Origin: Thermococcus sp.
Lineage (GTDB): Archaea > Methanobacteriota_B > Thermococci > Thermococcales > Thermococcaceae
Length of the DNA: 64,000 nt
Reading direction: 5' to 3'
NCBI RefSeq assembly: GCF_027012695.1
Contig: NZ_JALUYR010000047.1
Coordinates: 1-64,000, forward strand
Under the pieces are notes generated by a model. That model worked only from the letters and a program-made list of their open reading frames with translations, was not told the origin of the DNA and made no database searches. A program made the position numbers and the translations under genes. Below are positions 62,417 through 64,000 of this stretch, one piece after another. Each line of letters opens with the position of its first letter. The stretch's first letter is position 1.

Positions 62417-62502
62417 GCCGGGGTAGCCTAGCCTGGGAAGGCGCGGGACTCGAGATCCCGTGGGCTCCGCCCACCAGGGTTCAAATCCCTGCCCCGGCGC
62501 CA
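62417..62502 (+). tRNA. tRNA-Ser (CGA)
   Basis: GCCGGGG pairs with CCCCGGC; the anticodon arm CGGGA-CTCGAGA-TCCCG gives CGA; a long variable arm (TGGGC-TCC-GCCCA) marks class II. CCA is encoded. The nuclease gene that follows on the other strand ends inside the T arm (62481), so the tRNA's 3' part is shared by both. Confidence 0.96.
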
Positions 62503-63476
62503 TCTGCCTGGCCATCGAGGGTTTCTTGATCCGAGGAAAACTTCCTTTTAATATCCCTCAGGGACTTTTCGGTTATCTCTTTGAACTCTTCCCGGTTATT
62601 TCGTAGAAACCCTTCAAGATCAAACCCCGTTATGTTCTTCAGGAACTCAAAAGCTTCCTTTCCCTGGAGGACTACCCATCTCTGTTCGAGAGATGAGAGG
62701 TGGTTTGACAGGTTTACCGTGCTGTAGACCAGCATAACGGGCAGGTATCTGTTCTCATCTTTTGGATTCAGTCTCCTTGGATGATGGGGGTCGGTCAATA
62801 CCCCCGCCATGTCCAGATCCGCCTGTTTTCTCTTGGAGTCCCCGATATTGTATGCGTACCTAACCTCAATCCCGATGCCATCAAATTTCTCGTTATAATA
62901 GTCTATGTATTTGTCCGCGTTGGTCTTCTTTTTTCGCCCTGTACTCTGTTTTTCGCGAAGGGAATTAATATCCCGGTGTCTTTTGGCTATCAGGCGTTCA
63001 AGTTCCCTTCTAACGGCTTCTTGTTTTAAGGGGTCTTTTATGCTATCAAGAGGGATCAGTATATCCAGTGTTCGGGTGTGTTCTTTGGCTTTTTGATCCC
63101 CCTTCCTATTCCCCGTCTTCCCTTCCTCTGGTTTTTTGTACCCGAATCCTGTGAGGATCTTCTCATCTATTCCCAGTTTCTCACGGATTATCTCTTTCGT
63201 AATTTTTTTCTCAAATAGGTCTCCCAGCTTTCGGGTTGTACTCTGGACGAGGCCTCCCATTATCCGCCATTCTATAATGGTGGGAGCATCAAGTCCCAGC
63301 GAAGAAAAGACCACATCTTCTCTGTGACGACGAAGTTCCTTATCGAACTCATTAAGCCGTTTGTAGTCTTTGAGGCTCTCTAAGAGGTTGATAATCTCTT
63401 TTTTAATCCTTTCTTCCAGACTCGGTTTTTTGTCATCGGTATCCACTTTGATCCACTCCGCCAGATTGGTCTGCAT
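62481..63476 (-). CDS. Candidate type II restriction endonuclease, ends inside tRNA-Ser
   Basis: The 331-residue protein starts MQTNLAEWIKVDTDDKKPS at ATG 63476 behind GGGGGAGGG, 44 bases inside the HTH gene. The core has a long helical part, then GIGIEVRYAYNIGDSKRKQADLDMAGVL, a possible PD-(D/E)xK-like strand with ExR in place of ExK. Near the end VVLQGKEAFEFLKNITGFDLEGFL resembles the end of ApaLI-type endonucleases as I recall them. The last codons and the stop TGA come from the tRNA T arm. The region is A+T-rich against its neighbours, hinting at transfer. Function is inferred. Confidence 0.55.
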   Translation of the reverse strand: MQTNLAEWIKVDTDDKKPSLEERIKKEIINLLESLKDYKRLNEFDKELRRHREDVVFSSLGLDAPTIIEWRIMGGLVQSTTRKLGDLFEKKITKEIIREKLGIDEKILTGFGYKKPEEGKTGNRKGDQKAKEHTRTLDILIPLDSIKDPLKQEAVRRELERLIAKRHRDINSLREKQSTGRKKKTNADKYIDYYNEKFDGIGIEVRYAYNIGDSKRKQADLDMAGVLTDPHHPRRLNPKDENRYLPVMLVYSTVNLSNHLSSLEQRWVVLQGKEAFEFLKNITGFDLEGFLRNNREEFKEITEKSLRDIKRKFSSDQETLDGQADGAGAGI

Positions 63477-63789
63477 TGCCAAAACCCTCCCCCAGCAACC
63501 CCACTGCTTCCTCAAGTTTCTTTGCAACCTCTATGCCCCGGGATGTTAGCCGATAACTGACCCTGGAATTATCGTTGGTAATCACCTTTGTTATCAACCC
63601 CAGGGACTGAAGTTCCCTTATCCTTTTCATCAAAGTTTCAGGGGATCCACCTACCATCGCCAGAATCTGAGTCAGCGTGTATTTTTTGTGAGGTGTGTTC
63701 TCTTTTAGTACAAGGAGAAGCCTAATTGCACGGGGTCGTTCCAAAAACTTAATAAGCTCCCACTCTGGGGGGATTCTGTTGGAATCCAT
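63433..63789 (-). CDS. Winged-helix regulator of the candidate RM module
   Basis: The 118-residue protein has a winged helix at about residues 15-85: YTLTQILAMVGGSPETLMKRIRELQSLGLITKVITNDNSRVSYRLTSRGIEVAKKL, of the ArsR/MarR kind. It lies between the nuclease gene and the divergent partial gene at 63874. It overlaps the nuclease gene by 44 bases, so their expression is coupled. By position it could be a controller of the restriction module. Classic C proteins are of the Xre type, so this would be a different solution. Confidence 0.72.
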   Translation of the reverse strand: MDSNRIPPEWELIKFLERPRAIRLLLVLKENTPHKKYTLTQILAMVGGSPETLMKRIRELQSLGLITKVITNDNSRVSYRLTSRGIEVAKKLEEAVGLLGEGFGNADQSGGVDQSGYR

Positions 63790-63816
63790 CTCTACCGGCT
63801 CTGATAACCCGTAACG

Positions 63817-63846
63817 CTTAAAAACGTTTATTACGTCTTTCGTAAT
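63817..63846. promoter_or_regulatory. Shared promoter and inverted repeat between HTH gene and the partial gene at 63874
   Basis: ATTACG (63830-63835) and CGTAAT (63841-63846) form a 6-bp inverted repeat about TCTTT; CGTAA occurs again near 63810 and 63859. The A/T core CTTAAAAACGTTT just before could serve as TATA box on both strands. The HTH protein may bind here to control both directions. Confidence 0.45.
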
Positions 63847-63873
63847 ATGCTTCGAAATCCGTAAGGTGAGAGC

Positions 63874-64000
63874 ATGGGACAGGGCACTTTAGACGGGCTT
63901 ATGGTTTATCCCGGGAAAGGCAGGTTTAAAATCGTCTGGAAAAACCTAAGTCCCGAACTGATCACGTTTAAGGGAAAGTTCAACCATCCTGTTCACTCAT
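63874..64000 (+). CDS. N-terminus of a gene cut by the window end, candidate DNA methyltransferase
   Basis: ATG 63874 follows AAGGTGAGAGC. The 42 visible codons read MGQGTLDGLMVYPGKGRFKI and then IVWKNLSPELITFKGKFNHP and VHS. The words KFNHPVHS recall the start of some DNA (N4/N6) methyltransferases, and a divergent methylase is expected next to a nuclease and regulator. No catalytic motif is within the visible part, so the assignment is tentative. Confidence 0.4.
   Translation, partial: MGQGTLDGLMVYPGKGRFKIVWKNLSPELITFKGKFNHPVHS

What the first reader, a model, noticed from the sequence alone, without database searches (positions are those of the whole stretch)
62417..64000. Candidate restriction-modification module installed at tRNA-Ser(CGA), with the nuclease stop codon inside the tRNA
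The nuclease-like gene ends at 62481, its last codons and TGA lying in the T arm of tRNA-Ser. The stretch after the tRNA is richer in A+T than the rest, has a regulator overlapping the nuclease, and starts a divergent gene with methyltransferase-like first residues. tRNA 3' ends are the usual attachment sites for archaeal integrating elements. The order regulator-nuclease against a divergent methylase is that of controlled type II systems. The nuclease is only weakly like a known family, so its specificity may be new.
Basis: partly seen in the sequence, partly recalled or inferred. Interest (0 to 1): 0.65.

Follow-up and report, generated by a model that had tools for sequence, protein, structure and literature searches.

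The report
Restriction module borrowing tRNA's stop codon
A hyperthermophile-type archaeal genome has picked up a compact DNA-cutting and DNA-protecting gene pair of a bacterial family, squeezed so tightly between a tRNA gene and its neighbour that the cutting enzyme ends by reading backwards into the tRNA gene, which hints at how such defence units may move without a carrier element.

Summary
Between tRNA-Ser(CGA) and a convergent methionine aminopeptidase gene (map) lies a 2.7 kb, 46.7% GC block of three genes: a nuclease R (-), a winged-helix regulator (-) and, divergent, a full-length DNA methyltransferase M that runs past the window to contig position 65238. M and R are a cognate pair: R homologs sit beside M homologs in 18 of 94 fetched loci, almost all bacterial. 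M groups with the three loci where the genes are convergent (99/97). The site is free of R-M in 29 of 29 relatives examined; R is absent from every other archaeal genome searched. No integrase and no second tRNA 3' end were found, so the tRNA is not shown to be an att site. R's last 14 residues and its TGA are host DNA: the tRNA trailer and antisense T arm. The insert ends at the 3' ends of R and M, which in the nearest relatives touch each other. I therefore infer a circle or tandem array opened at the R/M stop-stop junction (inferred, not shown). The regulator is not a classical C protein. It is a new variant of a known kind; specificity is unknown.

The parts
62417..62502 (+). tRNA-Ser(CGA), intact, 3' CCA encoded
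   Evidence: ARAGORN; Rfam tRNA; 3 differences from most relatives with an 86-nt tRNA
62503..62525 (.). retained host tRNA trailer (TCTGCCTGGCCATCGAGGGTTTC), read antisense by R
   Evidence: 18 of 23 identical to L043; CTGCC within 12 nt of the tRNA in 24 of 29 relatives; mean alignment score to 29 trailers above all 258 control segments of the insert, by a modest margin
62481..63476 (-). R: restriction endonuclease, 331 aa from ATG (348 aa if from the TTG at 63527)
62481..62525 (-). host-derived tail of R: ETLDGQADGAGAGI + TGA, beyond the C terminus of the family
63433..63789 (-). winged-helix regulator, 118 aa, overlapping the start of R
   Evidence: HxlR PF01638 24.9 bits against cut-off 20.8
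63829..63847 (.). inverted repeat TATTACG-N5-CGTAATA between the divergent genes, possible operator
   Evidence: a repeat of this kind occurs in 57 of 1000 shuffles, so weak
63874..64000 (+). M: first 127 bases of the DNA methyltransferase gene, which ends at contig position 65238 (454 aa)

Best explanation
A complete type II R-M module of a mainly bacterial family (PD-(D/E)XK-like nuclease + SPPY-type amino-methyltransferase, probably N4-cytosine) was acquired by this archaeon and replaced most of the spacer between tRNA-Ser(CGA) and map. M should methylate host sites and R should cut unmethylated incoming DNA (inferred from the families, not assayed). The winged-helix gene, overlapping R and divergent from M, probably times or limits R and/or M expression (inferred). 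At the left junction the R reading frame was fused to host DNA: R lost its own stop and is ended by 14 host-encoded residues and a TGA supplied by the antisense of the T-loop TCA (sequence shown; the fusion history inferred). At the right junction the M stop abuts the map stop (TGA|TCA; shown). The outer ends are the 3' ends of R and M, which in the three nearest relatives face each other across 3-4 bp or overlap. The simplest route is a circle, or a tandem repeat, of an M> <R unit opened at that stop-stop junction and joined here by end joining or short homology (inferred).
For: M: PF01555 6.3e-10, PADLOC MTase_II 6.1e-35. R: PADLOC REase_II 3.6e-27; all 17 aligned R proteins match that profile. 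R homologs lie beside M in 18 of 94 M loci. M tree: the window groups with L082-L084 (99/97) inside a 25-row clade (99/97) that holds all 17 R-bearing rows of the tree. Best solved match of the R model is EcoO109I, Z 8.2 over 193 residues; most of the next rows are PD-(D/E)XK nucleases (that they are of this fold is recalled for most). Site without R-M in 29 of 29 relatives examined. GC contrast. R's C-tail runs beyond the family end and equals trailer + tRNA. M ends at the same residue as L082 and L084. Nearest relatives convergent, stops 3 bp, 4 bp and -11 bp apart.
Against: No activity or methylation data. R has E-V-R where PD-(D/E)XK enzymes have a lysine. EcoO109I Z 8.2 is near the background of 7-8 that the tool quotes. 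The circle is not observed: R and M occur once in the genome. Trailer homology is only 18 of 23 bases to the relative compared base by base. The genome is an unnamed draft of 146 contigs, so the junctions rest on one assembly.
Confidence: 0.8

Rival explanations
1. The module is the remnant of a larger integrase-type element that used the tRNA-Ser 3' end as att site and then lost its integrase and right att copy.
For: It adjoins the 3' end of a tRNA gene, the usual target of archaeal integrases (recalled), and has foreign-like GC.
Against: No second copy of the tRNA 3' end with up to 3 mismatches in 20 kb; no integrase noticed in ORFs to 79 kb. The host trailer stays joined to the tRNA, so the break is about 23 nt beyond the tRNA and not in it. 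Ends coincide with the 3' ends of R and M with no spare DNA.
Confidence: 0.12
2. The module came in by homologous replacement or natural transformation from another Thermococcales-type strain that already carried <R <wHTH M> between the same two genes; the order was fixed earlier and elsewhere.
For: Flanks are conserved in all 29 relatives examined, giving homology for exchange; complete R-M systems usually move in short stretches (passages of PMC4176335).
Against: No donor: R is absent from 395 of 395 other archaeal genomes by family profile and by alignment. It only moves the first insertion to another strain.
Confidence: 0.3
3. R is decaying: loss of its own stop by a chance deletion left a readthrough tail and an inactive nuclease, so M is in effect solitary.
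For: R has a foreign tail and diverges strongly (22-33% identity); E-V-R in place of E-X-K.
Against: The R frame is intact, family-invariant residues are kept, a strong ribosome site precedes the ATG, and E-V-R is shared by nearly all members, so it is not decay.
Confidence: 0.12

Closest known systems
Bacterial R-M loci L082 (Ignavibacteriales), L083 (Burkholderia sp. D-99), L084 (Anabaena sp. 54)
   Same: Homologous M (41%, 36%, 36% identity) and R (29%, 25%, 33%), adjacent genes
   Different: Convergent M> <R; L082 has an HTH_3 gene overlapping the start of M; no winged helix found beside M; R shorter and without the tail
PvuII-type C-controlled type II R-M systems (passages of PMC3850674)
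   Same: Regulator and R on one strand, M divergent
   Different: Regulator is a winged helix, not an HTH_3 C protein; R and M are of other families (recalled for PvuII)
EcoO109I (PDB 1wte), PfoI, Ecl18kI
   Same: Best solved restriction-enzyme matches of the R model, Z 8.2 / 5.2 / 4.4
   Different: 11 / 8 / 11% identity over the aligned residues; the usual active-site lysine position is arginine in R
Haloarcula virus HJTV-2 R-M region (MZ334513)
   Same: Archaeal setting, related M (28.6%), winged-helix gene upstream of and divergent from M
   Different: R is annotated Eco29kI-like, convergent with M; M lies outside the R-family clade
DraI system of Deinococcus radiodurans (PMC10855626: abstract and passages)
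   Same: Related m4C methyltransferase M.DraR1 (CCGCGG)
   Different: R.DraR1 is a GIY-YIG enzyme ten ORFs away; no R relative in the stretch fetched (L074)

Membership tests
Type II restriction-modification system | Methyltransferase gene adjacent to a restriction nuclease gene | tested here: met
Type II restriction-modification system | R and M are a conserved cognate pair | tested here: met
   R homolog beside M in 18 of 94 loci; all 17 R-bearing rows of the tree in one M clade
Type II restriction-modification system | Same-site cleavage and methylation activity | not testable with these tools
   needs enzymes or a methylome
PADLOC REase_II family PDLC03406 | Profile match | tested here: met
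   3.6e-27 for R; 17 of 17 aligned members, best 6.8e-145
PD-(D/E)XK nuclease superfamily | Fold | tested here: inconclusive
   model pLDDT 82.3, pTM 0.81; EcoO109I Z 8.2, rmsd 4.7 over 193; Foldseek none at E<=0.001
PD-(D/E)XK nuclease superfamily | Catalytic D ... (D/E)-X-K | tested here: inconclusive
   D144 invariant and E210 nearly so (model numbering), but R212 in place of Lys in nearly all rows
SPPY amino-methyltransferases (N4-cytosine type) | Motif I and SPPY motif IV | tested here: met
   DPFSGTGTT and TSPPY; that SPPY points to N4-cytosine is recalled
C-protein controlled R-M | HTH_3-type C protein | tested here: not met
   winged helix, HxlR-like; no HTH_3 hit up to E 1
C-protein controlled R-M | Symmetrical operator before C/M | tested here: inconclusive
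   7-bp inverted repeat, but 57 of 1000 shuffles have one
Integrase-borne element in a tRNA gene | Direct repeat of the tRNA 3' end | tested here: not met
   one copy only in 20 kb
Integrase-borne element in a tRNA gene | Integrase gene in the element | tested here: not met
   only R, regulator and M between tRNA and map

The most novel reading that the evidence does not exclude
R-M modules can move as naked circles (or tandem units) made of nothing but the R-M genes, opening at the stop-stop junction of R and M. Here the opened end of R was ligated to a tRNA trailer and rescued by the TGA that the invariant T loop offers on its antisense strand, so tRNA 3' flanks would be permissive landing sites for coding ends without any integrase. 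On entering the archaeon the unit carried or gained a winged-helix controller in place of the bacterial HTH_3 one.
Probability: 0.25. Interest if true: 0.6.

Novelty: new variant of a known kind. Interest (0 to 1): 0.42.

Why it matters
How R-M systems spread so fast while being rare on known mobile elements is an open question raised in PMC4176335 (passages), which suggests autonomous movement and small integration hotspots. Here is a case with an exact empty site in relatives, no carrier DNA at either end and ends that match the R/M stop junction of its nearest kin, so the model can be tested. It is also the only member of this R family found in 396 archaeal genomes searched, with an unusual regulator, and a source of a probably thermostable restriction enzyme of unknown specificity.

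Tried and rejected
R alone found nothing in plasmids, phages, viral contigs or genome contigs, nor in PDB sequences (alignment A3 only chance hits). Folding R without an alignment gave pLDDT 40 and was not used. The L017 ORF (E 0.75) was looked at and dropped. A single-M scan of viral contigs found nothing. Specificity: M.DraR1 and the HJTV-2 M resemble M and are tied to CCGCGG (annotation and PMC10855626), but their nucleases are GIY-YIG/Eco29kI-like and the HJTV-2 M is outside the R-family clade, so I reject predicting CCGCGG from this. Rfam found only the tRNA in seven loci, so no known RNA family was seen in the spacer. The winged helix has only weak matches in relatives (10 of 80 others, best 3.6e-5), and none reached significance beside the M loci. 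Seven rows of the 25-row M clade (L090, L091, L094, L096, L127, L162, L163) gave no R hit and I did not resolve their partners (output was cut). My script misplaced the map stop in 8 of 29 relatives (L048-L052, L055, L064, L065); for these I use the tRNA and match coordinates. M rows under 330 aa were left out of the tree. Paper searches for R-M and tRNA-Ser in Thermococcus, for a nuclease ORF ending in a tRNA, for circle/permutation movement of R-M and for winged-helix controllers listed nothing that I recognised as this arrangement; only titles and abstract starts were seen except for the papers named. In PMC10609329 (archaeal R-M survey; passages) and PMC12707154 (passages) the passages shown do not mention it.

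Full report
Setting. The window is positions 1-64000 of an 80,211-bp contig of an unnamed 1.75-Mb archaeal draft genome in 146 contigs. By gene content I take it for a Thermococcus; that name is recalled and no call gives it. I read on to contig position 79000 (L009).

What is there. tRNA-Ser(CGA) at 62417-62502 is followed by R (62481-63476 -), a 118-aa winged-helix gene (63433-63789 -) and, divergent, M (63874-65238 +). The next base starts the stop codon of map (65239-66126 -; type II methionyl aminopeptidase, TIGR00501, E 4.1e-116). Start sites are chosen from the sequence: GGGGGAGGG before the R ATG, GGTGAG before the M ATG.

M is a DNA methyltransferase. Pfam N6_N4_Mtase 6.3e-10 and PADLOC MTase_II 6.1e-35 over residues 24-441. 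Motif I (DPFSGTGTT, 73-81) precedes TSPPY (291-295). The short Pfam match is to the end of the model, as expected if motif order is permuted (inference).

R is a restriction nuclease. Pfam and NCBIfam give nothing significant, but PADLOC REase_II PDLC03406 matches at 3.6e-27. R searched alone found no relatives in collections. Going through M worked: a three-sequence M alignment fetched 80 loci from species genomes (the best 80 of 276 relatives found) and 14 viral contigs, and 18 of these 94 carry an R homolog next to M (iterative profile, E<1e-4). In 15 of 18 R precedes M on the same strand (two of these, L086 and L098, with R split between frames); in 3 (L082, L083, L084) the genes are convergent; in none are they divergent. 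All 17 aligned R proteins, the window's included, match PDLC03406. The M tree (56 rows; rows under 330 aa left out) puts the window with exactly the three convergent loci (99/97) inside a 25-row clade (99/97) that contains all 17 R-bearing rows of the tree. So R and M are an old partnership, and the window's nearest kin are convergent.

Structure. With the 17-row alignment AlphaFold2 gives pLDDT 82.3, pTM 0.81. Foldseek has no match at E<=0.001. VIA-align ranks EcoO109I first (Z 8.2, rmsd 4.7, 193 residues), then EcoO109I without DNA, with PfoI, Card1, Can2, Cdn1, McrBC, Ecl18kI, EcoT38I and BbvCI below. The tool warns that best Z of 7-8 is common, so the fold is likely but not proven. In model numbering (6 more than numbering from the ATG) D144 is invariant and E210 and R212 nearly so: a D...E-X-R pattern, with arginine where the family name has lysine.

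Acquisition. R is absent from 100 of 100 relatives, 114 of 114 other genomes of the phylum set, and 395 of 395 others by family profile and by alignment; these sets overlap. In 29 of 29 same-genus loci examined (those returned as loci, out of 60 same-genus genomes searched) tRNA-Ser(CGA) lies convergent with map. In 27 the spacer is about 90-280 bp; in 2 it is 635 and 764 bp with a Thg1-type gene or its remains. The insert is 46.7% GC against 56.7 and 56.5% on the sides; 0 of 285 windows of its size on the contig are as low.

Left junction. The relatives' trailer begins CTGCC(GAGCCC...) within 12 nt of the tRNA in 24 of 29. The window keeps TCTGCCTGGCCATCGAGGGTTTC, 18 of 23 identical to L043; over all 29 trailers its mean alignment score (21.4) exceeds all 258 control segments of the insert (highest 20.6), a modest margin, and a single control segment reached 34 against the best observed 35. 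This stretch and the tRNA are read antisense by R as ETLDGQADGAGAGI-stop, which extends beyond the C termini of the aligned R proteins. The stop is the antisense of TCA in the T loop. So R's conserved part is whole and its end is host DNA.

Right junction. M ends at the same residue as in L082 and L084, and TGA of M touches TCA, the antisense stop of map. No spare DNA is left at either end, and most of the old spacer is gone. In L082, L083 and L084 the M and R stops are 3 bp, 4 bp and -11 bp apart. Opening such an M> <R unit at this point, in a circle or a tandem array, gives the window's order <R ... M>. This is inference; R and M each occur once in the genome. R-M plasmids have been seen to enter chromosomes by crossing-over at 1-3 bp of identity in E. 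coli (PMC3031569, passages), which shows that very short homology can suffice.

Regulation. The regulator is a winged helix (HxlR PF01638, 24.9 bits against cut-off 20.8), not an HTH_3 C protein. L082 has an HTH_3 gene overlapping the start of M, while the archaeal virus HJTV-2 has a PadR-like winged helix divergent from its M. The two winged helices are not detectably related (phmmer E about 5). The inverted repeat TATTACG-N5-CGTAATA at 63829-63847 lies between the genes, near a TTAAAAA stretch that I read as a possible TATA box; such a repeat arises in 57 of 1000 shuffles, so it is only a hint.

Verdict. Added here are the cognate family, the empty site, the host-coded tail of R and the permuted order. 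Activity and specificity are untested.

Noticed in passing
L060 1660-2388 (-) and L053 186-820: The same tRNA-Ser(CGA)/map spacer holds a Thg1-type tRNA-His guanylyltransferase gene (PF04446, 5.5e-29), its stop 2 bp from the map stop, in one relative and what looks like a degraded copy in another. The left edge is again just past the trailer start ACTGCCGAGCC: a small insertion hotspot.
   Followed up: partly
L082 3720-4070 (+): HTH_3 regulator overlapping the start of M in the nearest bacterial relative; the regulator differs in type from the window's.
   Followed up: partly
L078 3565-6231: Archaeal virus HJTV-2 carries a related methyltransferase with a divergent winged-helix gene, a Trm112-family gene and an Eco29kI-like nuclease: a second archaeal R-M locus with a winged helix facing M.
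   Followed up: partly
window 62600-63160 (-): R has extra charged stretches in its middle compared with the shorter bacterial homologs (alignment A3).
   Followed up: no
L045, L049, L061, L063, L068, spacer after tRNA-Ser: Several relatives share longer spacers with similar, partly inverted-repeat-like sequence between tRNA-Ser and map; no Rfam family matches.
   Followed up: partly
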